Below, one piece after another: positions 2,559-17,888 of a stretch of 64,000 nucleotides of DNA (the first letter of the stretch is position 1; the number at the start of each line of letters is the position of its first letter). Source of the stretch: Bacteroidota bacterium (GTDB taxonomy: Bacteria > Bacteroidota > Bacteroidia > B-17B0 > Aurantibacillaceae); contig JAFDXR010000008.1 in assembly GCA_018267825.1 (NCBI GenBank), forward strand, positions 434,001 to 498,000. The letters run 5' to 3'. Under the pieces are notes generated by a model, which was not told where the DNA came from, made no database searches, and saw only the letters and a program-made list of their open reading frames with translations. The translations under genes were made by a program, and so were the position numbers.

Positions 2559-3287
2559 TTACGGTTTTTGCTGTATCAGTTCGTTGTAGCGCTTAATCAG
2601 CCTCTTTTTGTACACCTTCCGCTTTATAGACGCCATAATAAACGTGGTTGCTGATGCTGCAACAATTGCCGTGCCCGCATATAATAGACTGTTATCGCGC
2701 ATGCTAGCACCACCAAAAGCGTTTTCAGAAAGCACCACAACACCTATATTAAATGTACCCAATGCGGCTAAGCCTGAAATAGGAGCTGTAATTTGTTTTA
2801 CAATTCCCGCCTTACGATACTTTCGATAGAGCAGATCTATCTCCTGCTGTTGCAAACCAAGAACGCTTCTCTTAAAAACAATTTCCGATAGCTTATTGGC
2901 ACTGGATTCGATATATACGAGCCCGTGCCGCATATACATTGGCTTCCTGTATGGCAGACTTTCTGTCGGTTTATGAAATTCAAGGTATTTGAACCATGGA
3001 TTATAAATAGTATCTGCTCCACGGATGATGCCCAAAAAACGATGCCGCTTCAACCGGTGGGGTCCGGTGAGATTATTAAATTTATAGCATTTATAAAATA
3101 CTAATTCATCTGTGGTATCACGTATGATTTTTATCGGATGACTTGTATAGACCTTTGTCAAAAGCCTTACATTTTCTAATCCTTTCGCTGATCTGACATC
3201 TGTCTCACCTATCTGTGCAAAGCCAGTGTTGCTCATCAACAAAAGGAAGAGAAATATCGCTCTGGAGGCACCCGGCTTTTGCAACAT
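2559..3287 (-). CDS. Exported protein of unknown function
   Basis: Not recognised. It is 242 residues and starts with a clear signal peptide: a short charged segment, then IFLFLLLMSNTGFA with cleavage likely after GFA-Q at about residue 24. The mature part is basic. A central region is rich in aromatic residues (residues 60-110), and two moderately hydrophobic stretches near 163-185 and 196-215 could be membrane segments or a hydrophobic core. These are followed by a Lys/Arg-rich tail (KRKVYKKRLIKRYNELIQQ). It is convergent with acs and follows the large T9SS gene upstream, with a hairpin at 3311-3346 between them. It is probably a Bacteroidota-specific envelope protein; no catalytic motif was seen. 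Confidence 0.7.
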   Translation of the reverse strand: MLQKPGASRAIFLFLLLMSNTGFAQIGETDVRSAKGLENVRLLTKVYTSHPIKIIRDTTDELVFYKCYKFNNLTGPHRLKRHRFLGIIRGADTIYNPWFKYLEFHKPTESLPYRKPMYMRHGLVYIESSANKLSEIVFKRSVLGLQQQEIDLLYRKYRKAGIVKQITAPISGLAALGTFNIGVVVLSENAFGGASMRDNSLLYAGTAIVAASATTFIMASIKRKVYKKRLIKRYNELIQQKP

Positions 3288-3354: not shown

Positions 3355-6300
3355 TTAGTTTGCAATCACAATTTTTTTATTCATCAGTATTTTTCCGTCT
3401 CCGGTGATGCGGTAAAGATAAACACCATTTTCCAGATTAAGATTTCGCAAACTCATCTCTTTAGCGTCCGAAGACAATTCGTATTGACGCATCTCCCGTC
3501 CGTGAATATCATAAATAGTAAAGGTGATTTGGTTAAACCCTTTCAGGTCGTAACTCACGTGGAGCTCTTGCCCGGCCGGATTCGGAAACACCGCAATAGC
3601 ATAATCGCCGGCAAAAGCAACCTGATTCTCAGAACTGCCGGCCGTAGCCTTTCTTGTGTTATTTCCAGCTAAGGAGCCACTATTGTACTTTTCGCGGCAG
3701 TCGTTGATATTGCGAAGAGCATCGGTAACAGAAATTGTGTGCTGGAGTGCCTGTTGCTCGTTTGCAATAACACAGTTCCAGTATTCATACAGGTAGCGAT
3801 GTGCGGTTTTCGGGTTGGATTGGATAATGGCGTTGATTGCGCTCAGAGCCGATGTGCGGTCTTCTTTCAGAAGATAAACCATAGCTTTGTCCAGCAGCAT
3901 CAGGTCATTTACTTCTTTATAATCTACGTCGGCTGACGACTTTCTGACCTGACGTAAATTGATGATCTGCAACAGATCTGTGTAGCGGGCCTGCAAGCCG
4001 GCAGGAGCCTGACCTAAACTATCGATCCACGGCTTATACACTTGTGTTAGCTGTGCCACGCATGAAAACAATTTCTGATAAGCCAGCTCTAAGAGATATT
4101 TATCGGCATAATTCGTAAGCGGGGCCTGGTAATTGTATTTCAGGATCTCTGTTAATAAATTGGCAGCCTTGTTCACCTTGGTGGTGTCATCCAGATTGTC
4201 CATTTTATCTACCGAAAACGTGAGTGCCTTGCTTAGTTTTTTGTTATAAAAAGAAGTCGTTGTGATGCTTGAGCTTGGGCTATTGTCTGCGAGCGGATGA
4301 ATAAATGCCTGTTGTCCCCCTCCGCCATTATTTTGTCCGCCGCCATTTCCCTGGCAAGGTAAGGGCGCCATATTGAGTGGTGTGGCATCTATCATCACGG
4401 CTGGCGTTATCATATTATTGCCATTGCTGACAGTGAGCTTCGACAGCTTGTTGTAATCATACTCCAATGGGTGGCCGTTGGGCAGACGCCAATAGTTTGC
4501 CGTACCCACAAGCTCGCAATTGCCTGTGGTTGGATTAAATGGTGTCACCGGGTTGATGATCGTACCATCACTAATGGTTGGGCAAACCGTATAGACCGGA
4601 TGCCCTGGGCCTCCACTAATCACTTGCTGGCAAGGAGAGCTGTTATTGATGCTAAAGTTGTTGGCGCCCTGCTCTGTTTCCCAATACCAGGCTTCTTCAA
4701 AATGCGCAAACTGATCGTTGGATCCCCCATTCACGAAGCCTCCACCCAACAAAGTACTGGTATTGAGTTTACTCCCCGCTTCTCCGTAATATGCCAAATT
4801 GTTATTGGTGATCCCGGTGCAACGAAGCTTGGCCTCCATGTCTCCGGAGATTAGCATCCCTCTATATTGATGTTGTATGCTATTTGCCTGCATATATAAG
4901 GTCACCGGATCTCCTGATAAGATCACACCGTAAGTGTTGTACTGATAGGTTCCTGTTGAGTTAATCGTATTGTTTTGTATCGTACTGTTACCACCGATGT
5001 AGCCGGCAACAGCATATTGATTATTGATGAAATCATTGTTCCTGATATTCATGCCATGATCCATAACGGTTAATCCCTGGTTACAGCGCGTGAATGTGCA
5101 GTTCTTCACCTGGTTCAGGTCATAGCCACCATAGAACAAGGCAGCCTGAATGCCATACCCAAGGTCTTCGAAATCGCAATTGGTAAAATTTTGAAGAATG
5201 GTTCCATACACAACCACGCCGCGGGTTTTCTGACCCCCCTGAACAAATGTGGGATTACCTTTGAACCAGGTTTTGTCGAACACACACTTAACCGGCACCG
5301 ATAGCATGGCATTGGCAGCATTGAACTCTACTTTGCCTTTTGTAATTGTCATCACAGAGAGCTGATCAGGCATGTGTACATCCTGCTGGTTGATCTCCAT
5401 CACCTTGTCGTTTTTATTCTGCCCATTCAGTTTAAAAGACGCGCCGCTCCCGCAGCTGATCATGGCATTACCCGGAGCATAATTGTCCCACCAGGTGTTT
5501 CCACGGTTGAACTTAATGTAACCGCTATTGTTGCCCGTATAGTTGAATGTAAACTGGGCGTTGTTTCCGATATATAATTGCCCATTAAACTCCAGCACCG
5601 CATTGTCGCCATTGAGCTGAATTTGTGCTCCCTGGTTGTAAGTTAATTTACCGTAGGTGCCGCTGGTACCACTTGGGTCAATCTTGCCTTGAATGATCAC
5701 CTGGCCACCGTCTTCGACGATGAGTTTGGAGCCGTTTCTCAAATAAAAATTGGCCCCAGGTTCAATGATCAGTTTGGATCCAGTCCGGACAATAATGGTT
5801 GCATTATTACCGAGAGCCTCTAAGATGGACGCCTTTTTACAAATCAATTTGGTGTTGTTGCCAATATCTATTAAACCGTTGGCTAATACGGTTAATGAGG
5901 AATTGGTGTTAACAATTGTTTTTACGGAGTCATTGATCAAGCTATTACTGTTTTTAAATATGCCGTTAGTGCCCACAGTAACGTCACCTTCACATATTAC
6001 AAGCTCTGTCTTATTCGTCAGGGTTTTATTATTAATATATAATACTTGCGTGATGTACTCTTTTAAGCTGATACCATACTTTAGATAATCGCTAAAAATT
6101 CGTTTCACGGTCACCGATTGTGATAACTCCAGGGTGTTTGGATTGGTGTTTGTCTCTATTGCTGGTGATTTTTTGCAGTTGCAGCTATTGTCATCGTACT
6201 CAGGAAATGAACTATCCCCAAATTTCAATCTATACATATTATATAACCACATCCAATCGTTAGCGTTGTAATCTCCAAAATAATATGAGTCAGGATTTAT

Positions 6301-7839
6301 GTTATCATTTGTTGGATGCTCAAAGCTGTTTCCATTGTTCCAAAAAGACGTAAAGTCGCTGGAGCCGTAATTGTGTGGGCCGTTACAGTTCAGTTTACTT
6401 AGGAGCGTTGTATAGTGTGATTTTGAATTGTTCGGTGTTTTGTCATTTAAACAGGAATAAACCAGGTCCATGTTCTCGTGATTGTATTGATTGGCGAATT
6501 TCGAAACGTTTGTATGACTCCAGGTTCCACTCAAGGCGCCAAGCGCTTCCATCAAATACATGTTACGTCCTAGTGATGAAAGATCAACGATATAGTCTTT
6601 AGGATTTATCTTAAAACAAACCGGGTTCTTTTGAACATTGACTTCGAAAAAGGAAACAATAAGTTCATCGTTAATGGCTGGGAATCCCTCTAAGACATCC
6701 CACACGTGCTCTTTGGTCCATGACAAAGGAATGTGATAATCATGCGCATCGAGGCACCAATAACCATCCCCTGCCTGATCAACTATTTTATGGTGAATCT
6801 CTCGACCCATATAGGAGTTTCCGGTCAATTGCTCTCCTATTTTAGCGAGGGGGTATGCAAAAGGTCGGATGTCCTGGTTTTTTGTATCACTTGAACTCGC
6901 TCCAACTTTCCTGTTTGTAACCGGATTCATTAAAATCCAATTACCCCGGACATCATTGTCGGCACATTGACTTATTGCATATACTGTTCCTCCAAGACCC
7001 GGAGAAGCAAATAAATAACTGGATGGGCTTTGCTGGCTGTATAAGTATTCGGTATCCTGATCCGCTCTCAAAAGAGAAACATCGTTCGCACTCATATAGT
7101 CCATTATGCGCTCTGTAATTTCCTTAACCTTATCCAATAAATAAAAACCGGCATCAGTAGCCGTTGGCTTTACATACACATTTGGCACATATTTTTTGAT
7201 AAACTTAAAGCCTTGGAAAATGGTTACTATTTGGTCAAAGCCTGCTTCATTCACGGCTGAGTTTCCATGCGGCCCTCCCGCCTTATCAAAGTTGCCGCTC
7301 CGGCTGGCATCCAGGCATTGATAATTGAGCCAGGTATCATAAGAGCCCGGATACTCATCGTTCCATTTTTGAACAGTAGACTGGACAACATCGTCCCGAA
7401 GAAAAAAACCGTTGAATTGATCTGGTGGTTGTACGATATCAAATACTCTCTCTGCACCTCCATCCAATCGATCAATAGCATTAATGGCATAATATAATTC
7501 ATTGAGTGTGGCTGTTGTGCTCTTGCCCTCAGCAACTAAAAGGGCATATTCCGTAGCCAAAGTACACATGTAATCGCCCAGGTAACCGGTAGCGTCCCCC
7601 CAATAGACACAGCCTGCCGAGTTTGGCTTGTCGCTGGTGCATCTGTCGCCTGGCGCCTGGCGCTGAGCCATGGGGATACTTTGCCCCTGATTACTGCCAA
7701 TGCTGATAAAATATTTTCTAAATCGGTTTCTCATGGTCCAATAGGTTTGATTGAGCTTTTCATCGGTGGTTTGGCCATAAATAAGGTTGCCAATTAAAGA
7801 AACCGTAATAAATGCAAATAATACTCCCTTTTTTTTCAT
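3355..7839 (-). CDS. Large T9SS-secreted protein with a parallel beta-helix region
   Basis: A secreted or cell-surface protein of 1494 residues. The ATG at 7839 is chosen because the signal peptide MKKKGVLFAFITVSLIGN begins there; a TTG seven codons upstream is the alternative. Visible regions in order: signal peptide; an uncharacterised helical/aromatic region to about residue 580; a long Asn- and Gly-rich stretch (about 640-1110) with short beta-strand repeats such as NNATIIVRTGSKLIIEPGA, typical of right-handed parallel beta-helices; a Gly/Asn/Gln-rich linker near 1190; a helical stretch; and a C-terminal type A T9SS sorting domain with FPNPAGQELHVSYD, IYDIHGREM and GVYLYRI. The last domain implies export through the type IX system and surface anchoring or release. 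Beta-helix proteins of this kind are often polysaccharide-active or adhesive, but no catalytic residues could be assigned. Confidence 0.85.
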   Translation of the reverse strand: MKKKGVLFAFITVSLIGNLIYGQTTDEKLNQTYWTMRNRFRKYFISIGSNQGQSIPMAQRQAPGDRCTSDKPNSAGCVYWGDATGYLGDYMCTLATEYALLVAEGKSTTATLNELYYAINAIDRLDGGAERVFDIVQPPDQFNGFFLRDDVVQSTVQKWNDEYPGSYDTWLNYQCLDASRSGNFDKAGGPHGNSAVNEAGFDQIVTIFQGFKFIKKYVPNVYVKPTATDAGFYLLDKVKEITERIMDYMSANDVSLLRADQDTEYLYSQQSPSSYLFASPGLGGTVYAISQCADNDVRGNWILMNPVTNRKVGASSSDTKNQDIRPFAYPLAKIGEQLTGNSYMGREIHHKIVDQAGDGYWCLDAHDYHIPLSWTKEHVWDVLEGFPAINDELIVSFFEVNVQKNPVCFKINPKDYIVDLSSLGRNMYLMEALGALSGTWSHTNVSKFANQYNHENMDLVYSCLNDKTPNNSKSHYTTLLSKLNCNGPHNYGSSDFTSFWNNGNSFEHPTNDNINPDSYYFGDYNANDWMWLYNMYRLKFGDSSFPEYDDNSCNCKKSPAIETNTNPNTLELSQSVTVKRIFSDYLKYGISLKEYITQVLYINNKTLTNKTELVICEGDVTVGTNGIFKNSNSLINDSVKTIVNTNSSLTVLANGLIDIGNNTKLICKKASILEALGNNATIIVRTGSKLIIEPGANFYLRNGSKLIVEDGGQVIIQGKIDPSGTSGTYGKLTYNQGAQIQLNGDNAVLEFNGQLYIGNNAQFTFNYTGNNSGYIKFNRGNTWWDNYAPGNAMISCGSGASFKLNGQNKNDKVMEINQQDVHMPDQLSVMTITKGKVEFNAANAMLSVPVKCVFDKTWFKGNPTFVQGGQKTRGVVVYGTILQNFTNCDFEDLGYGIQAALFYGGYDLNQVKNCTFTRCNQGLTVMDHGMNIRNNDFINNQYAVAGYIGGNSTIQNNTINSTGTYQYNTYGVILSGDPVTLYMQANSIQHQYRGMLISGDMEAKLRCTGITNNNLAYYGEAGSKLNTSTLLGGGFVNGGSNDQFAHFEEAWYWETEQGANNFSINNSSPCQQVISGGPGHPVYTVCPTISDGTIINPVTPFNPTTGNCELVGTANYWRLPNGHPLEYDYNKLSKLTVSNGNNMITPAVMIDATPLNMAPLPCQGNGGGQNNGGGGQQAFIHPLADNSPSSSITTTSFYNKKLSKALTFSVDKMDNLDDTTKVNKAANLLTEILKYNYQAPLTNYADKYLLELAYQKLFSCVAQLTQVYKPWIDSLGQAPAGLQARYTDLLQIINLRQVRKSSADVDYKEVNDLMLLDKAMVYLLKEDRTSALSAINAIIQSNPKTAHRYLYEYWNCVIANEQQALQHTISVTDALRNINDCREKYNSGSLAGNNTRKATAGSSENQVAFAGDYAIAVFPNPAGQELHVSYDLKGFNQITFTIYDIHGREMRQYELSSDAKEMSLRNLNLENGVYLYRITGDGKILMNKKIVIAN

Positions 7840-7914
7840 ATCGTTTAGTTTTGGTTTCAATGTACAAGGCTATTTACCACATGGGAGTTGTTATGGTAAG
7901 CCACAATCAATCAA

Positions 7915-8009: not shown

Positions 8010-8696
8010 TTACTGCACGATGTGGTAACGAACTAGTTTCCATACATGATTACTATCCGCTTGTTCACGGCGTATTATTCCAATATTCCGAGCAATGTAA
8101 TAGTTAGTGTTTTGCTTATCGTCAATGATGCTTTTACTATTATACCATTTTTCAACGCTACTAAAATTCAAACCATTTTCAGAGTAGATATTATATAAAT
8201 AAACGTATTCTGTATAATCTGGATATGTCCCCAGTTTTTTATTAAGGTTGGCGTTCGCCATCAGAATAGTCTGCCCTGTATTATAAGAGCTATTGGCAGT
8301 AGAATATTTTTCTCTATTGAGAGCTGTAATGCTCTTATCCGAATAATTCACATTCCATGTCTGATCCACCCAATTCTCATATTGGTAATGATCGTAGCTA
8401 CTCTCCGACCAGCAACTATACCAGCCAAACGTACCGGTATAAGGATAGTCGTTACTTTCGCTTATCGTTTTATTGCCGCCATTGGCTTTGAAAACCCATA
8501 CGCTATCTATTATATGGCTGATACTATCTTCATACACCCAATAGGTGCCTGGTTTGAAACAACCATAGTCCCATAACTCCTGCGGAATCTCAAAATGATA
8601 ATTTGGCTTAGCCTCCGGATCTTTCTTACACTTTTGGCAAGCGGTTAAAACCAACATTAAAAACAACATTTTCAAATATGTACCCGCATGTTTCAT
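8010..8696 (-). CDS. Lipoprotein, copy A of a tandem pair
   Basis: An envelope lipoprotein of unknown function. From the ATG at 8696 it is about 228 residues: a signal sequence ending in the lipobox LTAC, then a Lys-rich CQKCKKDPEAK tail. A -7 promoter box (TATCTTTG) ends only six bases before this ATG, which supports it over upstream codons, although a start at the later ATG giving MLFLMLVLTAC cannot be excluded. The mature part has many Trp and Tyr residues (YWVYEDS, FGWYSCWSESSYDHYQYENWVDQTW), suggesting a beta-rich domain. It is a duplicate of the gene at 8816-9472. The first ~98 mature residues differ at one position, the last 39 at about four, and the ~90 residues between are largely unrelated. 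Confidence 0.8.
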   Translation of the reverse strand: MKHAGTYLKMLFLMLVLTACQKCKKDPEAKPNYHFEIPQELWDYGCFKPGTYWVYEDSISHIIDSVWVFKANGGNKTISESNDYPYTGTFGWYSCWSESSYDHYQYENWVDQTWNVNYSDKSITALNREKYSTANSSYNTGQTILMANANLNKKLGTYPDYTEYVYLYNIYSENGLNFSSVEKWYNSKSIIDDKQNTNYYIARNIGIIRREQADSNHVWKLVRYHIVQ

Positions 8697-8702
8697 GTTT
8701 CC

Positions 8703-8710
8703 CAAAGATA
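8703..8710 (-). promoter_or_regulatory. -7 promoter box TATCTTTG for lipoprotein copy A
   Basis: The minus strand reads TATCTTTG, an exact match to the Bacteroidota TAnnTTTG -7 element, six bases before the ATG at 8696. No convincing -33 TTTG was seen. Transcription would begin at or near the start codon, leaving almost no leader. Confidence 0.55.
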
Positions 8711-8815
8711 TAAAAAATCTCATGCCCGACTTGATTTTTAACATTTACAGTCGTTTAAATCGCCCGTCAGATAAGGCTTCCGGCACTCCTGTGAAGTAAA
8801 TAATTACTAAATCAA

Positions 8816-9472
8816 TCACTGCACGATGTGGTAACGAACTAGCTTCCATACATGGTTACTGTCCGCTTGTTCACGTTTTATAATGCCTATATTTCTTGCA
8901 ATATAATATATTGTATTTTGTCCATCGTCAATGACACACTTATCATTTTTCCATTTTTCCACATCAATGTATGAATATCCGGCTAATAAAAAGTTGCTGT
9001 AAAACGTTTCATAATTAGTCGCTCCCTGACGTGTATAAAGCGTTTTTCCTTTTTGTATATCCGACGTCAAAATTGTTTCTCCTGTATTAGATTGACTGGA
9101 TGGTGTTGAGTATCGGTCTCTATTAACATTGGTGTTTGTATATCCTGCCGCTGCACCATTCACATTCCATGTCTGATCCACCCAATTCTCGTACTGGTAA
9201 TGATCATAGCTACTCTCCGACCAGCAACTATACCAGCCAAATGTGCCGGTATAAGGATAATCGTTACTTTCGCTTATCGTTTTATTGCCGCCGTTGGCTT
9301 TGAATACCCATACGCTATCTATTATATGGGTGATACTATCTTCATACACCCAATAGGTGCCTGGTTTAAAACAACCATAATCCCATAACTCCTGTGGAAT
9401 CTCAAAATGATAATTTGGTTTAGCCTCCGGATCTTTCTTACACTTTTGGCAAGCGGCCAGGGTCATTATCAA
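8816..9472 (-). CDS. Lipoprotein, copy B of the tandem pair (signal peptide apparently frameshifted)
   Basis: Paralogue of the gene at 8010-8696, of unknown function. The longest open frame with a usable start begins at a TTG (9472) and would give only MIMTLAAC before the lipobox cysteine, far too short for a signal peptide. Translation of the same frame upstream still resembles a lipoprotein signal (KLRRLSIYLKVLCLIMTLAAC) but has no ATG. An ATG does exist at 9539 in the +1 frame, four bases after the stop of the upstream gene and preceded by GGAAAAAG. Removing one A from the four-A run at 9524-9521 (minus strand) joins it exactly to the rest, giving about 240 residues. So this copy is either a recent frameshift mutant or carries a sequencing error. 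A TTG start without export is the third option. Confidence 0.7.
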   Translation of the reverse strand: MIMTLAACQKCKKDPEAKPNYHFEIPQELWDYGCFKPGTYWVYEDSITHIIDSVWVFKANGGNKTISESNDYPYTGTFGWYSCWSESSYDHYQYENWVDQTWNVNGAAAGYTNTNVNRDRYSTPSSQSNTGETILTSDIQKGKTLYTRQGATNYETFYSNFLLAGYSYIDVEKWKNDKCVIDDGQNTIYYIARNIGIIKREQADSNHVWKLVRYHIVQ

Positions 9473-9543
9473 ACACAGTACTTTTAGATATATCGATAAT
9501 CTTCTCAGCTTATATAATCGTTTTGAAACGAGGCTTCATCGCT

Positions 9544-9870
9544 TTACTTTTTCCATAACGTCACATCATAATGCTTCAGATCACTAGCCGATAAGAATTT
9601 CTTGTAATAATCCCCGCTATCACAGTCAACACTGATTCCAAAGTATTGACCCCTGCCTGCCCAAAAATTGAACGTAAAATGCCCGGCATCGTCGGTCGTT
9701 GCCTGTTCTTCGGTAAACGGCTCATCGGAGCCTGATGTAAATCTTGGGATAAAAACCTTAACATGACTCATCGGGTAGTGATGTTTTGAATACACGATCC
9801 CCTCTGACTTTACATGCCTCGTACACGAGGTGACAACCGCCACCAAAAGAAATAAGCCCACCTGTTTCAT
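9544..9870 (-). CDS. Small lipoprotein with a carboxypeptidase-regulatory-like fold
   Basis: A lipoprotein of about 108 residues, starting at the ATG at 9870 (MKQVGLFLLVAVVTSC; lipobox VTSC). An upstream TTG would add eight polar residues before the hydrophobic core and is less likely. The mature part reads GIVYSKHHYPMSHVKVFIP then TTDDAGHFTFNF. This is the usual pattern of CarboxypepD_reg or transthyretin-like beta-sandwich domains, where a short loop precedes a 'T-D-x-x-G-x-F' strand. The gene ends four bases before the ATG (9539) that appears to be the original start of lipoprotein copy B, so the two were probably one translationally coupled operon. Its partner or substrate is unknown. Confidence 0.75.
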   Translation of the reverse strand: MKQVGLFLLVAVVTSCTRHVKSEGIVYSKHHYPMSHVKVFIPRFTSGSDEPFTEEQATTDDAGHFTFNFWAGRGQYFGISVDCDSGDYYKKFLSASDLKHYDVTLWKK

Positions 9871-9972
9871 AACCTGTTTTTGTTCCTGGCACAACTATCG
9901 TGCCCCGAAAACCAATGTTGATAAGGGTTGTAGACATTTACTATAGTATTTTCGGTTGGTTTTCTCCATAAA

Positions 9973-10019: not shown

Positions 10020-10658
10020 CTATTTGATGAACTTCCTCAGAGATGTACCAAATCCGGCACCCATTACCACCCATTGAATGGTTGTATCAGGACCCGATAC
10101 GGTCAGTTTTGAGTTTGTACAATAGATATCATCGCCCAGCGGGTTTGGCTGATCCGGCACAACAATGTCCGTGTCGTTTACCATACCAAAGTAAACCGGG
10201 AAGATATAGGCTGTATTGCCGGCTACACCACCCACGTTATCGGTTGTGTATAACCCTGTGCCCAATTTGGTAACGTTCATGGTTTGTCCGTTCGAAGTAC
10301 GCGTATAAACGCCGCTGTAATCGATCGCCGAAGAAACCGGTGTTACAAGCACCAGGCGCGAAATAGAAACGTTATAGCCATACTCTGTTCTTTTGGAATA
10401 CGTTGCCGAATAAAAACCAGGTGTGGTCAAATCCACATTGCTGCTGGTTGGTGTGGTCAATACAGTTGTATTGCCGTTCTCATCAATCAGCTTAGCGCCA
10501 GGATCCGAGTATGTGCCCGTTCCCACAGGCGTGCTGTAAACCGCCGTGCCAATCAGTTCCATCTTAGGAACATTCACCACTTTGGTTGTGCTCTCTTTTT
10601 TCTTACAGGCCGTAATCAATACGAGTCCGGCCAATGCTGTTATTACAATATTTTTCAT
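10020..10658 (-). CDS. Lipoprotein of the SusCD operon, DUF5012/BT_2262-like
   Basis: The third gene of the susC-susD operon, 19 bp after susD. It is 212 residues. The lipoprotein signal MKNIVITALAGLVLITACKKK (lipobox ITAC) places it on the outer membrane. The N-terminal half contains an Ig-like segment (YSDPGAKLIDENGNTT...VDLTTPGFYSATYSKRTEYGYN) characteristic of the surface 'DUF5012/BT_2262' proteins that often accompany SusD-like lipoproteins. The C-terminal half is a beta-rich domain with many Tyr, Thr and Gly residues. By position it is probably an accessory surface ligand-binding lipoprotein of the uptake complex. It is followed by a strong hairpin at 9973-9996. Family assignment is by eye. 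Confidence 0.75.
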   Translation of the reverse strand: MKNIVITALAGLVLITACKKKESTTKVVNVPKMELIGTAVYSTPVGTGTYSDPGAKLIDENGNTTVLTTPTSSNVDLTTPGFYSATYSKRTEYGYNVSISRLVLVTPVSSAIDYSGVYTRTSNGQTMNVTKLGTGLYTTDNVGGVAGNTAYIFPVYFGMVNDTDIVVPDQPNPLGDDIYCTNSKLTVSGPDTTIQWVVMGAGFGTSLRKFIK

Positions 10659-10676: not shown

Positions 10677-12137
10677 TTAGTTTACATCCCACCATACTTT
10701 ATCGTAAATCAAGTGCTGCGCCGGAACATTCGGGTTACGGGTAAGCTCTGAGCTTGGATAGAACATGCGATTCGGCATTTTGCCAGGACCAATGATCGAG
10801 TGCACCGAAGGAACCAAGAATGAAGGATAGCCTGTTCTTCTGTATTCTGTCCAGGCCTCATTTCCCTGTGTTCCGCACATCGCAAACCATTTTTGTGTAA
10901 TGATCGCTTCAACCTGTTGGGCAACGGTTCCTGAAGCAGGATAGGCCACCTGCGGCTGAGCAAAATAATATGGAGCCAGGGTATCAGATAAACCACAGTC
11001 TACGTAACTGGCAGTAATACCAGACTCGTAAAATGTTTGAGCTGTTCCCGGCAGCCAGGTACGGGCTGCGGCTTCGGCCTGTAAAAACAAGCTTTCATAA
11101 TCGCTCATCAGTTTTACCGGCGCATTGGCCGATGTAGCATCGTTTACATTGGCACCAGTAATAGCGCCTGGCAACGATAACGATGTTACAGGAATATTAG
11201 ATGTATAATCACCCTGTGCATTACCCTGGAACGAACCATTACTCAACGGTGTATACACCACAGCAATACGATCATCAAACCAGTTATACATGGTATCGAG
11301 ACAGGTGGAGCTGGCCACAAAGTTCTGTGTTCCATTAATCTCAGAGAATACAGAATAGTATGGATTTGTATTACCCGGAGTAGAAGTGTACTTAATTTGT
11401 ACATTTTCGCCGGCACCAAGGAAGGTTGCACTGGCCATAGAGGCAATACCCGCCTGGGCTTTAGCAGCATCTACATAAGCCATACGCAGATATACGCGCA
11501 GCTTGAGGGTGTTCGCAAACTTGGTCCACATGGTCATGTCGCCACCCAGCAGGATGTCGTCTGTAGTCGGGCCATCTGTAGCAGAAGGATCGATCAGTGC
11601 CAGACCGTCATCAATCAGCTTAATGATCCCGTCATACACGTCTTTCTGTGTGTCATATTTTGGGGAAATCACGCCATCTTCACCCTTCAGGGCATCAGAA
11701 AACGGAATATCACCAAAGTTGTCGGTCAACACCTGATACGTATACGCCTGCAGAATTTTGGCGCAAGCCACATACTGGAATTTACCTTCTTCTGTACCTT
11801 TCTTCACTACATAGTTCAGATCCTGTAAGGCATCTGAATAGCAAAGTCTCCATGGCGCATCAAAATCGTCGGCAGCCGGAGAATATTGCTCCAGTGTTTT
11901 ATACTGAGATGAATACGGATTTTGTGTCCAGTATTCTCCCCAGATACAGCCATATACCTGGAAGTTGTTCCCCATGGCATGTCCGATCGCTAACTCCGCA
12001 GAAGGAAGCACATCCTTTACCTCAACCTTTGACGGTGAGTTAGGGTTGTCGTTGATGTCGAGGAAATCTTTTTTACAGCTCACAAATAACATGGACCCCA
12101 TGGCGGCTGTAAGAATATATCGATTGATTGTTTTCAT
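10677..12137 (-). CDS. SusD/RagB-family nutrient-binding lipoprotein
   Basis: An outer-membrane lipoprotein that acts as the lid and binding partner of the SusC porin. It is 486 residues, with lipobox VSC in MLFVSCKKDFLDINDNPNSP. The FLDINDNPN start and a C-terminal end with EAWTEYRRTGYPSFLVPS and the LTRNPNVP block match the SusD-like_2 subfamily. Helical TPR-like stretches (FQYVACAKILQAYTYQVLTDNFGDIPFSDAL) are visible at about 125-155. It is encoded 21 bp after susC, in the usual order. SusD-like_2 pairs are often not linked to glycan PULs, and no glycoside hydrolase is nearby, so the ligand may be a peptide or another oligomer. Confidence 0.93.
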   Translation of the reverse strand: MKTINRYILTAAMGSMLFVSCKKDFLDINDNPNSPSKVEVKDVLPSAELAIGHAMGNNFQVYGCIWGEYWTQNPYSSQYKTLEQYSPAADDFDAPWRLCYSDALQDLNYVVKKGTEEGKFQYVACAKILQAYTYQVLTDNFGDIPFSDALKGEDGVISPKYDTQKDVYDGIIKLIDDGLALIDPSATDGPTTDDILLGGDMTMWTKFANTLKLRVYLRMAYVDAAKAQAGIASMASATFLGAGENVQIKYTSTPGNTNPYYSVFSEINGTQNFVASSTCLDTMYNWFDDRIAVVYTPLSNGSFQGNAQGDYTSNIPVTSLSLPGAITGANVNDATSANAPVKLMSDYESLFLQAEAAARTWLPGTAQTFYESGITASYVDCGLSDTLAPYYFAQPQVAYPASGTVAQQVEAIITQKWFAMCGTQGNEAWTEYRRTGYPSFLVPSVHSIIGPGKMPNRMFYPSSELTRNPNVPAQHLIYDKVWWDVN

Positions 12138-12158
12138 ATCTTTTCTTTTTTACGGGGT

Positions 12159-15100
12159 TTAGAAGTTAAAGTTGAACTTAAAACCAAAGTTTCGCTGAGA
12201 TGGGTTCGCGGCAAACTCAAAGCCCTGAACGTTACCCGAGCCCGATGAACCCATTTCCGGATCTGAATACACGTTTGTTTTGTGTGTCCAGAGGAACAGG
12301 TTGTTCGCAAATAAACCTACACTGATTGCACCGAAAGGTGTTTTTGTGAGGTATTTGCTTGGGATGCGGTACGACATAGACACCTCGCGCAGTTTGATAT
12401 AACTGGCGTTCAGAATATGCTGTCCGTCCGGAATCTTATTGGTGTAGTAGTTATACACATCATATTTGCGATTCGTGTTTGTTACGTATTCGCCTTTGTA
12501 GTTCTTATACACCGAGTTATCCCACAGTTTATCTTCACGTCCGCCTTCAGCCGTTTCAGGAGCAGTTCCTACGAAATCCATCAAGCTCTTGGTGTAAGAG
12601 TAGAACACGCCACCTTGTTTTGTATCAAACATAAAGCTGAATGAAAAGTTTTTGTAGCTGATCTGAGCGCCTAATGAAGCCTGGAATTTAGGTTGGTAGT
12701 TCCCTAAAATAACCGAGTTCGTTGTTGTCATTGGTAAACCGGTTGCAGAGTCAACAACCGTGTGACCGTTTCCGTCTGTTTGCAGACTTACGCCGTAAAA
12801 CGCACCATAAGGTTGCCCCTGCTGTGCCACAACTGCCATACGCGAGAAACCACCTAACACAATCTGGTCAACACCGTCCTGGATAGATACAACCTTGTTG
12901 CGGTTGCGTGTATAGGTTGCGGTAACATCCACTTTCAGACCGTTCGGACGGCTGATTGGTGTACCGCGTACGAGTAACTCCACCCCTTTGTTTTCGATTT
13001 TACCGGCATTGATCGTTTTCGATGTAAAGCCTGATGCATTCGAAATAGGTACGTTAATGATCTGGTTGGTAGAGTTGTTCACATAATAAGAGAAGTCAAA
13101 ACCTAAACGATCGTGGAAGAAACTTAACTCTGTTCCGATTTCAAACGCTGTTGTGATCTCCGGTTTCAGATTCGGGTTTCCTAAGCGATCGCCCTGTGTA
13201 AAGGCGTTCACTGTACCGAATGGTGTGGTAGTAGTACCAAAGCCACCGTCGATAGTTGTTTTGTTGAAAATAGATGTTGTCAGGTACTCATCTGCATCTT
13301 TACCAACTTTTGCGTAGCTCGCACGGAGTTTACCGTAGTTGAACCAGCTGTTTTTAAGGCTGTCGTTAAACAGTTCGGAAAACACCCATGATGCATTCAC
13401 ACTCGGGTAGAAATACGAACGGTTGCTTTTCGGTAAAGTCGAAGACCAGTCGTTACGGGCCGTCACGCCTAAGAAGAGCATGTTTTTATACGCCACGTTC
13501 GCATCCATATAAGCACCGATCAGACGGCGTTTAAAGGTATTGTTTGTTGTAAGCGCAGCACCATTGGAGTTAGAGATGTTGTAGTAATCAGCAATAGCCA
13601 GACCACCTTGTGCATTGGTTTGAGCAAACAGCTCTGTCGTTGTTTTCTGGCGTACGTTGTGGCCCAGTGTTCCGTATACACGCCAGTTGCTGTTGATCTG
13701 CTTATCGAAGTTCAGCATGAGGTCGTTCGTGATCTCATTCACGTTATAGATATCCTCAGAGTATTTACCCTGGTAAATTTTGTTGTTACCGGCCCAGAAC
13801 GGATCAATCGGCTCGTAGCTGTATTTTTTCCATTTCTGGTAGCGGCGGTCCGAGTAAATATCACCCCCGATACGCTCGGTGATAGTCAGCCATTTGGTAG
13901 CGGCGTAAGACAATGTTGTATTACCCTGTAAGTGGTCTACCTTGTTACTGTTACGATAGTTCTGCAATACAAAGTAAGGATCGGTTGTATAAGCACCGTA
14001 GAAACCGTATTTACCGGTTTGGTCGTTGTACTGGTTGAACGGGTTGTTCAGGTCTTTTCCTTCCGTAATAGGAATATCGCGCGGCGTCTGGATCAGGTTT
14101 GCATAAATCGATCCGTCGCTCTGACCACCTGTTGGCAGGTCACTGTTGATGCTGTTGTAGCTGGCAGAGATCGATGATGTGAATTTGTTGGTGAGCTGTG
14201 TCGTTCCGTTGAAACGAATGCTGTATTTGTTGTAGTCTGTTGTTTTGATGATCCCTTTATTGTTCAGGGCATTCATCGAAAGGTAGTATGTCGATTTTTC
14301 GTTACCACCCGAGATCGCCAGGTTGTTGTTGTATGTATAACCGGTTGTGAAGAAATCCTTGATGTTGTTTGGAAGGTTCTCGTATTTCTTTACACGCTGC
14401 TGGCCATCGATGATCTGACCCCACGGACGGTATTCGCCGTCAAAGGCTTTACCCCACGAGAAGTTCTCACGACGGTCATCAGCAATGTTATGCAAGTCAC
14501 CCTCACCATACTCACCCTGTGTTCTCGGCACCCTCAGGATACGTGAGAATGTGGTGCTTGAGCTGAAGGTGATATCCATCTTACGGTTTTCGTTTGTCAT
14601 ATTACGACCGTGTTTGGTCGTAATGATGATCGCACCGTTCGATGCACGCGATCCATAAAGGGCCGCTGCAGCCGGACCTTTCAGTACCGAAATGCTTTCG
14701 ATGTCGTCCGGGTTAATATCGTTGGCACGGTTACCGTAGTCAACCTGATTGTTCAGGTCATCACCGGTTCTGAATGCCGAGTTATCGATAGGAATACCAT
14801 CTACTACCATCAGTGCCTGGTTGTTTCCCGTGAGTGAGGTACCCCCACGAATCACGATACGGTTCGAGGTACCCGGACCGCCGGTACTGCTGGTAACGTT
14901 TACCCCTGATACTTTACCCTGTAAACCACTGATGATATTGGTGCTCTGACCTTTGGTGAGCTCATCATTGCTTACCTGCTGGGTTGAATACCCGAGGCTT
15001 CGTTTTTCACGTTTGATCGCGTTGGCTGTTACAACTGTTTCATCGAGTTGCAAAGCTTCCTGCGTCATCACAGCATCAATGTTGTCGGCTACCGCATATT

Positions 15101-15353
15101 CTTTCGGTTTGTAGCCAAATAAGCGTAAAGAGATCTTCTTTACAGAATCCGGTAAAGCAATGGTAAACTGCCCGTCAACATTAGTGAATGCCGAGAGTGA
15201 AGTGTTCTTTACCCCAATAGCAACCCCAAACAATGGCTCTTTGGTAGAAGCATCTTTAACAGTACCCGTCACAACCCGTGTCTGCGCCTGCGTAAGCAAA
15301 CCCAGAAACAGGAATACAAATACCATTATGGATTTTTGTGTTTTTACTTTCAT
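12159..15353 (-). CDS. SusC/RagA-family TonB-dependent outer-membrane transporter
   Basis: A 1064-residue outer-membrane transporter. Order of parts: signal peptide to QAQ (about residue 24); a carboxypeptidase-regulatory-like domain (VVTGTVKDASTKEPLFGVAIGVKNTSLSAFTNVDGQF) to about 105; a TonB plug domain with the family signature VDGIPIDNSAF and DINPDDIESISVLKGPAAAALYGSRASNGAIIITTK at about 185-245; and a beta-barrel ending in an aromatic terminal residue (FKFNFNF). No N-terminal anti-sigma extension is seen. It is the first gene of an operon with susD and a lipoprotein. TATATTCG on the minus strand, about 21 bases before the start, matches the -7 consensus at 7 of 8 positions. The divergent neighbour is an S46 dipeptidyl-peptidase, which fits peptide uptake, although that is inference. 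Confidence 0.96.
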   Translation of the reverse strand: MKVKTQKSIMVFVFLFLGLLTQAQTRVVTGTVKDASTKEPLFGVAIGVKNTSLSAFTNVDGQFTIALPDSVKKISLRLFGYKPKEYAVADNIDAVMTQEALQLDETVVTANAIKREKRSLGYSTQQVSNDELTKGQSTNIISGLQGKVSGVNVTSSTGGPGTSNRIVIRGGTSLTGNNQALMVVDGIPIDNSAFRTGDDLNNQVDYGNRANDINPDDIESISVLKGPAAAALYGSRASNGAIIITTKHGRNMTNENRKMDITFSSSTTFSRILRVPRTQGEYGEGDLHNIADDRRENFSWGKAFDGEYRPWGQIIDGQQRVKKYENLPNNIKDFFTTGYTYNNNLAISGGNEKSTYYLSMNALNNKGIIKTTDYNKYSIRFNGTTQLTNKFTSSISASYNSINSDLPTGGQSDGSIYANLIQTPRDIPITEGKDLNNPFNQYNDQTGKYGFYGAYTTDPYFVLQNYRNSNKVDHLQGNTTLSYAATKWLTITERIGGDIYSDRRYQKWKKYSYEPIDPFWAGNNKIYQGKYSEDIYNVNEITNDLMLNFDKQINSNWRVYGTLGHNVRQKTTTELFAQTNAQGGLAIADYYNISNSNGAALTTNNTFKRRLIGAYMDANVAYKNMLFLGVTARNDWSSTLPKSNRSYFYPSVNASWVFSELFNDSLKNSWFNYGKLRASYAKVGKDADEYLTTSIFNKTTIDGGFGTTTTPFGTVNAFTQGDRLGNPNLKPEITTAFEIGTELSFFHDRLGFDFSYYVNNSTNQIINVPISNASGFTSKTINAGKIENKGVELLVRGTPISRPNGLKVDVTATYTRNRNKVVSIQDGVDQIVLGGFSRMAVVAQQGQPYGAFYGVSLQTDGNGHTVVDSATGLPMTTTNSVILGNYQPKFQASLGAQISYKNFSFSFMFDTKQGGVFYSYTKSLMDFVGTAPETAEGGREDKLWDNSVYKNYKGEYVTNTNRKYDVYNYYTNKIPDGQHILNASYIKLREVSMSYRIPSKYLTKTPFGAISVGLFANNLFLWTHKTNVYSDPEMGSSGSGNVQGFEFAANPSQRNFGFKFNFNF

Positions 15354-15722: not shown

Positions 15723-17888
15723 ATGAAAAAAACCGTACTATCCCTGATTATTTTTTCTTTTTTCCTGCGGCCAATCGCAAAGGCCGACGAAGGCATGTGG
15801 CTCCCGATGCTCCTTGGCGAGCAGGTTTACGCCGACATGGTAAAACGTGGTCTTAAGGTCAGCAAGGAACAGCTGTATAGCATGAACCAGGCGTCTATTA
15901 AAGATGCTATTGTGATTTTTGGTGGCGGCTGCACCGGTGAGATCGTAAGTAAAGAAGGTCTTATTTTCACCAATCACCACTGTGGTTACAATGCCATTGC
16001 CTCTGCAAGCTCCGTAGAACATAACTATCTCAAAGATGGTTTCTGGGCAAAAAGCAAAGACCAGGAAATTTCTTCCCCCGGCCTGAGCGTTCAGTTCCTC
16101 GTGAAAATTACAGACGTAACCGACAAAGTAAATGAGCGCATTAAAGGGCTCAGTGCTACAGAACTTACCCAGAAACTTCCGGGAATCCTTACGGAGATCG
16201 CCAATAAGGAAACAGAAGGCTCGGGCTACGAAGGTCGCATCGCCTCTATGTTCAAGGCTAACCAGTTTTTACTGTTTACCTACGAACGCTTTAAAGACGT
16301 GCGCCTGGTAGGTACACCGCCTGAAAGTATCGGTAAATTCGGCGGCGATACCGACAACTGGGAATGGCCACGCCACACTGGTGATTTCTCTATTTTTCGT
16401 GTATACATGAGTAAAGACGGAAAACCAGCCGACTTCGCAGCCGACAACGTGCCTTACAAACCAAAATACTCATTGCCTGTATCTATCAAAGGTGTGAAAG
16501 ACGGCGATTACTCCATGATCTACGGTTACCCGGGTGGAACCAACCGCTATGAAACCTCTTTTGGTGTAAAACTGAAAACAGATGTCGAAAACCCTTCGCT
16601 TGTTGGCCTCCGCGATGTGCGCCTGAAATACATGTTCGAAGAAATGAAAAAAGATCCGGCCACAAAACTACAGCTCGCCGGTTCTTACGCCGGTATTGCC
16701 AACTACTGGAAGTTTTTCGACGGTGAAACACAGCAGTTATTGAAATACCATGTGTATGAAGAAAAACAGGCCAACGAAGCAGCTTTCGCTGCCTGGGCCA
16801 AAGGAAAAACAGAATACGACAACCTGTTTGCCGATTACCAAAAAATTTATGATGCCTGGAGGCCTTATGCCAAACAACGTGTGTACCTCAACGAAGGTAT
16901 CCTGGGCTCTCCGCTTGTAGCATTTGCTTCATCTCTCCAAAAACTGGACGCAACCCTGAGCAAAAAAGATGCAACCAAAGAAGAGATTACAAAAGCCACA
17001 GATGCTGTTAAAACAGCACGTGCCAACTTTATTAAATCAGAAAATATTACATCCGATAAAAATATCCTGGGTGCTGTTACCCAGATGTTCTTTAATGATG
17101 TGGATGCCAGCCAGCATCCATCCAACTTCTACCACTGGCTTGGCACGACATTCGGTGACCTGAAAAGCAAAAAATCGTACGAAGCCTATGCCGACTACGT
17201 GTTCAGCAACACCATGATTCTGGATGATGCCAAATGGAACAGGTTCCTGGAAGCTCCGGATACCGCTACATTACACAAAGACGCAGCGTATATGACTGCC
17301 AGCGCGTTCAACAGCAATTTCAATAACAACTATGCGAAATTCTTTACCGATTTTTCAGCGCAGAATTTCTACCTGGGTAAAACATACCTGAAAGGAATCC
17401 TGGAAATGAACAAGGGTAAGAAAATGTATCCGGATGCCAACTTCACCATGCGTGTGAGTTATGGTAATGTGAAATCGTATACTCCCCGCGATGCCGTAAA
17501 ATACAATTACGTGTGTACATTAAGCGGTGTACTCGAAAAATACAAACCGGGCGATTATGAGTTTGACCTTCCTGCCAACCTGCTCGAAAAAGCCAAAGCA
17601 AAAGATTTTGGTCAGTATATGGATGCTACCGCAAAAGACATTGTAGTTACCTATATTACTACCAACGATATTACCGGCGGTAACTCCGGTTCTCCGGTGC
17701 TCAATGCAAAAGGCGAGCTCATTGGCCTGGCATTCGATGGAAACTACGAGGCACTCAGCCATAAAATTGCATTCGACAAAAACCTCAACCGTACCATTTG
17801 CCTGGATGTGCGCTACCTGCTTTGGGTTGTCGACAAACTGGGCGGAGCAAGCAACCTGATTCAGGAGCTTGATCTGAAAAAAATCTAA
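15723..17888 (+). CDS. S46-family dipeptidyl-peptidase, DPP7-like
   Basis: A periplasmic serine exopeptidase that removes dipeptides from the N-termini of oligopeptides. It is 721 residues with a signal peptide (cleavage near AKA-DEG, residue 21) and the mature start DEGMWLPM typical of the family. The catalytic triad is visible as NHHC (His85/86), HTGDFS (Asp221) and GGNSGSPV (Ser655). Eighteen residues after the Ser, in FDGN, position 673 is Gly. Published work on the family links Gly here to DPP7 (hydrophobic/aliphatic P1) and Arg or Ser to DPP11 (acidic P1), so a DPP7-type specificity is inferred. The region 300-560 is the alpha-helical lid. A strong terminator follows. Confidence 0.93.
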   Translation: MKKTVLSLIIFSFFLRPIAKADEGMWLPMLLGEQVYADMVKRGLKVSKEQLYSMNQASIKDAIVIFGGGCTGEIVSKEGLIFTNHHCGYNAIASASSVEHNYLKDGFWAKSKDQEISSPGLSVQFLVKITDVTDKVNERIKGLSATELTQKLPGILTEIANKETEGSGYEGRIASMFKANQFLLFTYERFKDVRLVGTPPESIGKFGGDTDNWEWPRHTGDFSIFRVYMSKDGKPADFAADNVPYKPKYSLPVSIKGVKDGDYSMIYGYPGGTNRYETSFGVKLKTDVENPSLVGLRDVRLKYMFEEMKKDPATKLQLAGSYAGIANYWKFFDGETQQLLKYHVYEEKQANEAAFAAWAKGKTEYDNLFADYQKIYDAWRPYAKQRVYLNEGILGSPLVAFASSLQKLDATLSKKDATKEEITKATDAVKTARANFIKSENITSDKNILGAVTQMFFNDVDASQHPSNFYHWLGTTFGDLKSKKSYEAYADYVFSNTMILDDAKWNRFLEAPDTATLHKDAAYMTASAFNSNFNNNYAKFFTDFSAQNFYLGKTYLKGILEMNKGKKMYPDANFTMRVSYGNVKSYTPRDAVKYNYVCTLSGVLEKYKPGDYEFDLPANLLEKAKAKDFGQYMDATAKDIVVTYITTNDITGGNSGSPVLNAKGELIGLAFDGNYEALSHKIAFDKNLNRTICLDVRYLLWVVDKLGGASNLIQELDLKKI

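What the first reader, a model, noticed from the sequence alone, without database searches (positions are those of the whole stretch)
8010..9472. Tandem lipoprotein duplication with identical ends and divergent middle
The two copies share about 98 mature residues with one difference and a C-terminal 39 residues with about four, while the ~90 residues between are unrelated in sequence and length. This mosaic pattern fits either recent gene conversion of the ends or replacement of a variable middle domain, as seen in surface antigens or polymorphic receptors.
Basis: seen in the sequence. Interest (0 to 1): 0.52.

Follow-up and report, generated by a model that had tools for sequence, protein, structure and literature searches.

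The report
Recombining lipoprotein pair beside secreted surface protein
Two neighbouring lipoprotein genes share near-identical ends but an old, divergent middle because recombination copied the ends between them; relatives in many other bacteria show the same pattern and often sit next to a giant exported surface protein, hinting at matched pairs such as a weapon and its antidote.

Summary
The mosaic is real. Copy A (8010-8744, -) and copy B (8816-9535, -) share a 294-nt 5' block (97/98 residues; 12 synonymous changes, 1 non-synonymous) and a 57-nt 3' block (19/19 residues). Between them the middle is homologous (24/67 residues identical), not unrelated, and synonymous sites there are saturated, as they also are in the conserved stretch before the 3' block. 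Relaxed selection cannot do that; recombination between old tandem copies can. The family has no Pfam name but occurs in 54 of 396 sampled genomes of the class. Tandem copies elsewhere show the same low-high-low synonymous profile (0.19/0.38/0.21), whereas between-genome pairs are flat (0.52/0.53/0.48). The gene just downstream encodes a 1501-aa protein with a type IX secretion (T9SS) sorting domain. All 8 long (>=1300 aa) relatives of it found in the 396 genomes lie beside such a lipoprotein gene, and lipoprotein similarity follows its variable N-domain. Other arrays sit beside T9SS-type proteins with an invariant metallopeptidase motif. Stubs of the partner gene and a decayed lipoprotein lie inside arrays. 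Best reading: lipoproteins cognate to a T9SS surface effector, evolving like T7SS immunity arrays (TilA/TipC). Protection itself is untested.

The parts
8010..8744 (-). Lipoprotein copy A (244 aa), next to the T9SS partner gene
   Evidence: Open frame with lipobox LTAC
8816..9535 (-). Lipoprotein copy B (239-codon open frame; start uncertain: CTG 9508, or a too-short TTG 9472)
8349..8642 (-). Homogenised 5' block of A (lipobox to NVN)
   Evidence: 97/98 aa, 13/294 nt, 12 synonymous / 1 non-synonymous
9161..9454 (-). Homogenised 5' block of B
8148..8348 (-). Divergent middle of A
   Evidence: 24/67 aa identical, pS 0.76
8954..9160 (-). Divergent middle of B
8070..8147 (-). Old conserved C-terminal stretch of A, outside the recent tract
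   Evidence: 19/26 aa but pS 0.82
8876..8953 (-). Old conserved C-terminal stretch of B, outside the recent tract
8013..8069 (-). Homogenised 3' block of A
   Evidence: 19/19 aa, 3/57 nt
8819..8875 (-). Homogenised 3' block of B
3355..7860 (-). Partner: 1501-aa exported protein with T9SS type A sorting domain, directly downstream of A
   Evidence: Por_Secre_tail 1424-1499, E 4.2e-10; adjacency conserved
6181..7440 (-). Variable N-domain of the partner (residues 141-560) whose similarity the lipoprotein follows
3364..3591 (-). T9SS C-terminal sorting domain of the partner

Best explanation
A and B are two old tandem copies of an unnamed Bacteroidota lipoprotein family. SHOWN: homologous recombination (gene conversion) has recently overwritten the 5' part of the mature coding region and the last 19 codons, leaving the old divergent middles; the same happens in many other tandem arrays of the family but not between genomes. 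SHOWN: a recurrent neighbour, immediately downstream, is a large protein with a T9SS sorting domain, and array gaps can hold stubs of that partner gene or dead lipoproteins. INFERRED: the lipoprotein is the cognate partner of the variable N-domain of that exported protein. The conserved ends are scaffold and recombination tracts, and the variable middle sets the match. When a new partner N-domain arrives with its lipoprotein, the old lipoprotein stays upstream as an orphan, and the array becomes a bank of specificities. INFERRED, least certain: the lipoprotein restrains or neutralises the exported protein at the cell surface (immunity/inhibitor).
For: Breakpoints at synonymous sites in the window pair: pS 0.75 signal, 0.21 5' block, 0.76 middle, 0.82 pre-end, 0.25 end. 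30 of 35 tandem pairs with >=50% aa identity show clustered synonymous change at p<=0.05, against 2 of 16 between-genome pairs. By partition 22 of 35 pairs and 10 of 16 arrays have ends<middle, against 1 of 12 between-genome pairs. Partner adjacency: 8 of 8 class-1 partners >=1300 aa, but 4 of 43 shorter relatives, lie within 3 kb of a lipoprotein gene; counting both classes, 19 of 20 adjacent partners are downstream and all 20 are on the same strand. Lipoprotein similarity follows the partner N-domain once the C-half is held constant (partial rank r 0.46, p 0.014; converse 0.26, p 0.061; 10 loci); G163a/b: C-half 91%, N-domain 30%, lipoprotein 26%. Relics: partner stubs in G334 and G046; a decayed G044-type lipoprotein in G029, whose partner C-half is G044-like while its N-domain and live lipoproteins are window-like. 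Arrays in five genomes adjoin large proteins with invariant HExGH...EGxAD. Precedent: TslA/TilA and tipC.
Against: Only 20 of 91 lipoprotein clusters (8 of 17 tandem) lie beside a recognised partner of the two classes; large arrays in G322:C3, G196, G160 and G379 have none directly downstream. No toxin or enzyme domain is recognised in the class-1 N-domain, the window's own type. The N-domain correlation rests on 10 loci; lipo_N alone correlates with the C-half as well (rho 0.37, p 0.0035). The G029 pair is not significant alone (p 0.077; 0.226). The middle shows no excess of amino-acid change where synonymous sites are unsaturated (L061), so diversifying selection is not shown. Both structure predictions failed. 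Class-2 adjacency is partly by ascertainment (5 of 8 were picked as neighbours).
Confidence: 0.5

Rival explanations
1. The lipoprotein is a docking, folding or retention factor for the T9SS protein at the outer membrane: it binds the variable N-domain to assemble it, with no antagonism.
For: Same adjacency and N-domain co-variation; both products are predicted to reach the cell envelope (lipobox; sorting domain).
Against: Does not by itself explain surplus copies, arrays without partner, or partner stubs between copies.
Confidence: 0.25
2. Surface antigen or phage/predator-receptor variation: the middle is the exposed part, varied by recombination among tandem copies; the neighbouring T9SS protein is incidental.
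For: Constant-variable-constant mosaics; many arrays with no recognised partner.
Against: 8 of 8 long class-1 partners are adjacent; lipoprotein follows the partner N-domain; only two copies in this genome, so no silent bank.
Confidence: 0.15
3. Glycan-binding accessory (SusE/F-like) of the SusC/SusD genes at 10677-15353.
For: In the window SusD lies about 1.1 kb upstream of B on the same strand (SusC/D named by eye).
Against: No SusC/SusD cluster recurs beside relatives; no Pfam match.
Confidence: 0.05
4. Old duplication with locally relaxed selection in the middle and no recombination.
For: Protein conservation alone looks like this.
Against: Synonymous divergence differs several-fold between segments, and the conserved pre-end stretch is saturated; between-genome pairs are flat.
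Confidence: 0.03

Closest known systems
TilA / DUF576 (Lpl) tandem lipoproteins with the T7SS lipase toxin TslA, Staphylococcus aureus (PMC10730906, passages seen)
   Same: Tandem lipoprotein genes directly upstream of a large exported protein whose N-terminal part is the effector; variable copy number; orphan copies.
   Different: No DUF576 match; partner carries a T9SS sorting domain, no lipase domain found; Gram-negative; no neutralisation shown.
tipC (and esaG) immunity gene arrays, T7SS (PMC9484751, abstract and tipC section read)
   Same: Two blocks of high similarity near start and end, variable centre, lipoprotein signal, recombination between tandem paralogues through the blocks.
   Different: No match was found to a named family; different secretion system; here block edges reach the lipobox and stop codon, and partner stubs can lie between copies.
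TANFOR/BaCT polymorphic toxins of Bacteroidetes (PMC7073777, passages seen)
   Same: Large Bacteroidota proteins linked to T9SS, with variable domains and adjacent immunity genes.
   Different: TANFOR toxins vary at the C-terminus with immunity genes downstream; here the N-domain varies, lipoproteins lie upstream, and the partner has no TANFOR hit.

Membership tests
T7SS-type immunity lipoprotein arrays (TilA/Lpl, TipC) | Tandem lipoprotein copies with conserved start and end and variable centre | tested here: met
T7SS-type immunity lipoprotein arrays (TilA/Lpl, TipC) | Recombination between tandem paralogues through these blocks | tested here: met
   Within-array 30/35 vs between-genome 2/16
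T7SS-type immunity lipoprotein arrays (TilA/Lpl, TipC) | Sequence membership of DUF576 or another named immunity family | tested here: not met
   No Pfam match for 28 members at E<=0.01; A and B none at E<=1
T7SS-type immunity lipoprotein arrays (TilA/Lpl, TipC) | Partner is a T7SS substrate | tested here: not met
   Partner has a T9SS sorting domain
T7SS-type immunity lipoprotein arrays (TilA/Lpl, TipC) | Neutralises the adjacent toxin | not testable with these tools
   Needs binding and protection assays
TANFOR polymorphic toxins | N-terminal TANFOR domain (TIGR02542) in the partner | tested here: not met
   NCBIfam scan of the window partner at E<=0.1 gives only Por_Secre_tail
T9SS type A substrates (partner) | C-terminal sorting domain | tested here: met
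   PF18962 40.2 bits vs cut-off 27; 9 of 14 aligned partners match at E<=0.01
T9SS type A substrates (partner) | T9SS machinery in the genome | tested here: met
   SprA 2411 bits vs cut-off 200; other components not tested
Gluzincin metallopeptidase (class-2 partners in other genomes, not the window's) | HExxH plus a downstream glutamate motif, invariant | tested here: met
   H434 E435 G437 H438 E472 G473 A475 D483 invariant in 5 of 5; gluzincin naming recalled; activity untested
SusE/F-like accessory lipoproteins | Recurrent SusC/SusD neighbourhood | tested here: not met
   No such neighbour cluster in three or more loci

The most novel reading that the evidence does not exclude
A widespread, so far unnamed T9SS-linked effector-immunity-like system of Bacteroidota: large surface-exported proteins with exchangeable N-terminal effector domains (an unrecognised domain, or a metallopeptidase) paired with upstream lipoprotein arrays whose variable middles are the matching antidotes and whose conserved ends serve as recombination tracts; displaced lipoproteins accumulate as orphan immunity.
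Probability: 0.3. Interest if true: 0.82.

Novelty: new variant of a known kind. Interest (0 to 1): 0.6.

Why it matters
The T9SS is widespread in Bacteroidota, and the TANFOR authors wrote that a role in interbacterial competition would follow if their toxins were T9SS substrates (PMC7073777, passage seen). A recurrent, recombining pair of exported protein and lipoprotein gives a directly testable candidate, and shows that constant-variable-constant evolution of tandem lipoproteins, described for Gram-positive T7SS immunity genes, also occurs beside a different secretion system.

Tried and rejected
Rejected: relaxed selection (synonymous profile); 'unrelated middle'; SusE/F-like role. An assembly artefact or merged repeat is unlikely, since 12 synonymous differences with 1 non-synonymous lie inside the shared block. 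B as a long-dead pseudogene is unlikely for the same reason (P 2.8e-8 under neutrality), although its start codon is odd.

Led nowhere: AF2 of mature A with 4 sequences (pLDDT 38); AF2 of the partner N-domain from a single sequence (pLDDT 33); no fold search was run on either. Profile searches of the PDB: the lipoprotein family gave only chance-level hits (best E 0.13), class-1 partners were recognised through the sorting domain and weak beta-rich matches only, class 2 gave none. PADLOC: none for A, B or partner. Phages: no match. Plasmids: one partial Hymenobacter match, 24% of the query. Viral-contig scan with the family alignment: none. Genome contigs: one relative, L032. Paper searches: searches returned no paper; some searches gave the precedents cited; none listed this pair, but most subscription journals are not in the library.

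Rows dropped before counts: one search used 12 of the 16 between-genome pairs (those with >=50% aa identity); one search used 12 loci (10 in the partial test, leaving out G112 and G303); one search took 10 of the 36 rows, leaving out rows that match only the second half of the profile (position 666 on) and the short stub row G112:C39:20936-21424, and merged double rows of one gene.

Full report
WHAT IS THERE. On the minus strand, gene order is SusC/SusD-like genes (named by eye), an Ig-like lipoprotein (10020-10658, PF16403), a 116-aa small lipoprotein (9544-9894), copy B (open frame 9535-8816), copy A (8744-8010) and a 1501-aa exported protein (7860-3355) with a T9SS type A sorting domain. 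A and B have lipoboxes (LTAC, LAAC) and no Pfam match at E<=1. The own genome holds just these two family members at E<=10.

THE MOSAIC. Codon-wise: signal peptide 6/18 residues identical, pS 0.75; codons 35-132 97/98, pS 0.21; codons 133-199 24/67, pS 0.76; codons 200-225 19/26, pS 0.82; last 19 codons 19/19, pS 0.25. The 5' block spans A 8349-8642 and B 9161-9454 with 13 nt differences and no gap (blastn: 299 nt at 95.7%). The pre-end stretch is conserved in protein yet saturated at silent sites, so protein constraint alone cannot make the low-divergence blocks. Inside the 5' block 12 of 13 changes are synonymous (P 2.8e-8 under neutrality), so both copies stayed under purifying selection after the exchange. 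In an N-block tree A and B are sisters (98%); in a tree of middle plus pre-end they are not grouped, with weak support. Reading: old duplication, later homogenisation of the ends.

IS IT GENERAL? Relatives: 38 of 199 near genomes, 25 of 87 in the same taxonomic family, 54 of 396 in the class. In the class sample 118 rows form 91 clusters, 17 with two or more genes. From fetched loci I took 92 distinct members; 23 locus/strand groups had two or more. For tandem pairs with at least 50% aa identity, synonymous changes are clustered at p<=0.05 in 30 of 35; misses are L034, L058, two L066 pairs and L073. In between-genome pairs 2 of 16 reach that level. With fixed partitions the fraction of changed codons among identical residues is signal 0.15, N 0.19, middle 0.38, end 0.21 within arrays (35 pairs, 16 arrays; 22 pairs and 10 arrays at p<=0.05), and 0.53, 0.52, 0.53, 0.48 between genomes (12 pairs, 1 at p<=0.05). 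Pairs within one array are not independent, so the array count matters most. Breakpoints vary: G046 shares only leader and signal peptide; G353 shares everything from upstream of the start to codon about 76 of the alignment, and two of its copies share the last ~20 codons.

THE PARTNER. Taking the window partner's N-terminal part as query gave 51 class-1 genes in 42 of 396 genomes: 12 lie within 3 kb of a lipoprotein gene. All 8 with an open frame of at least 1300 aa do (7 of 7 without the query itself), against 4 of 43 shorter ones. A second, unrelated class (G112, G193, G322, G433, G461) has an invariant HExGH ... EGxAD signature in 5 of 5, typical of gluzincin peptidases (recalled); three of these five scored Por_Secre_tail, and the G433 and G322 frames used there were cut by the locus end. 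Ten class-2 genes were counted, 8 adjacent, 5 of which were chosen as neighbours in the first place. Over both classes 19 of 20 adjacent partners are downstream, all on the same strand.

PAIRING. The class-1 partner is itself mosaic. In G163, partners a and b are about 91% identical in the C-half but 30% in the N-domain, and their lipoproteins are 26% identical; b and c: 43%, 37%, 47%. G029 vs G044: 69%, 28%, 29%. Window vs G029: 40%, 54%, 45%. So the lipoprotein goes with the N-domain. Formally: partial rank correlation with the N-domain given the C-half 0.46 (p 0.014), with the C-half given the N-domain 0.26 (p 0.061), 10 loci. The lipoprotein middle correlates with the N-domain (rho 0.27, p 0.02) and not with the C-half (0.03, p 0.40); the lipoprotein N-block correlates with both (0.30, p 0.028; 0.37, p 0.0035). 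This is suggestive, not strong.

RELICS. G334: [partner stub][lipoprotein][partner stub][lipoprotein][full partner], stubs 93% and 88% identical to the partner's first ~110 residues. G046: a stub of the partner's start lies between the two lipoproteins; no other class-1 match was listed in its 15-kb locus. G112: 5' fragments of the class-2 partner lie next to each lipoprotein. G029: the gap between two live lipoproteins holds a decayed lipoprotein matched only by the G044 and G046b types among 92 queries, while its partner has a G044-like C-half and a window-like N-domain. The simplest account is that lipoprotein and N-domain were replaced together and the old lipoprotein was left to decay.

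MECHANISM AND ITS LIMITS. Recombination of the ends is well supported. Cognate pairing with the partner N-domain is inferred from gene order, co-variation and relics. Immunity or inhibition is inferred by analogy: S. aureus TilA lipoproteins sit upstream of and neutralise the N-terminal lipase domain of TslA (PMC10730906, passages), and tipC arrays have conserved start and end, variable centre and recombination (PMC9484751, section read). Against: 71 of 91 clusters have no recognised class-1/2 partner, several large arrays have none nearby, and the class-1 N-domain resembles nothing known. Docking without antagonism remains the main rival.

NOVELTY. No Pfam match covers the family (28 members; the best NCBIfam matches are E 0.0004-0.001, to two families, one in 3 members and one in 1). 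Searches listed no paper on this pair. It works like T7SS immunity arrays; it is not a member of them, because two defining features (sequence family, secretion system) were tested and not met.

Noticed in passing
window 9449-9540 (-): Copy B has no ATG, GTG or TTG that would give a full signal peptide; CTG at 9508 aligns with the ATG of A, and an ATG at 9540 is in another frame. 84 of 92 family members have an ATG in the expected stretch.
   Followed up: partly
L037, L039, L078 (one genome, G163): Three partner paralogues in one genome; two have nearly identical C-halves and strongly diverged N-domains.
   Followed up: yes
L058:1882-5583 and L071:2105-3414: In G312 each lipoprotein copy is followed by a ~215-aa protein with a cysteine near its start and hydrophobic C-terminus; a similar one follows the G012 pair (similarity judged by eye).
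   Followed up: no
window 9544-9894 (-); L085:11912-12448: A small carboxypeptidase-regulatory-like protein (below Pfam cut-off) precedes the window pair; a protein that looks alike by eye precedes the G322 array.
   Followed up: no
G000:C13:156833-157240 (L092): Weak TANFOR-like match elsewhere in the genome (40.5 bits, cut-off 67).
   Followed up: no
L067:5330-9783: In G303 the class-1 partner is split into two consecutive open frames (740 and 680 aa), by a disrupted gene or a sequence error.
   Followed up: no
window 15723-17888 (+); L089:1040-3214: A protein with an ADEGMW start (S46-peptidase-like, recalled) lies near the lipoprotein genes in the window and in G369.
   Followed up: no
window 2559-3287 (-): An exported-looking 242-aa protein without Pfam match follows the partner gene.
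   Followed up: no
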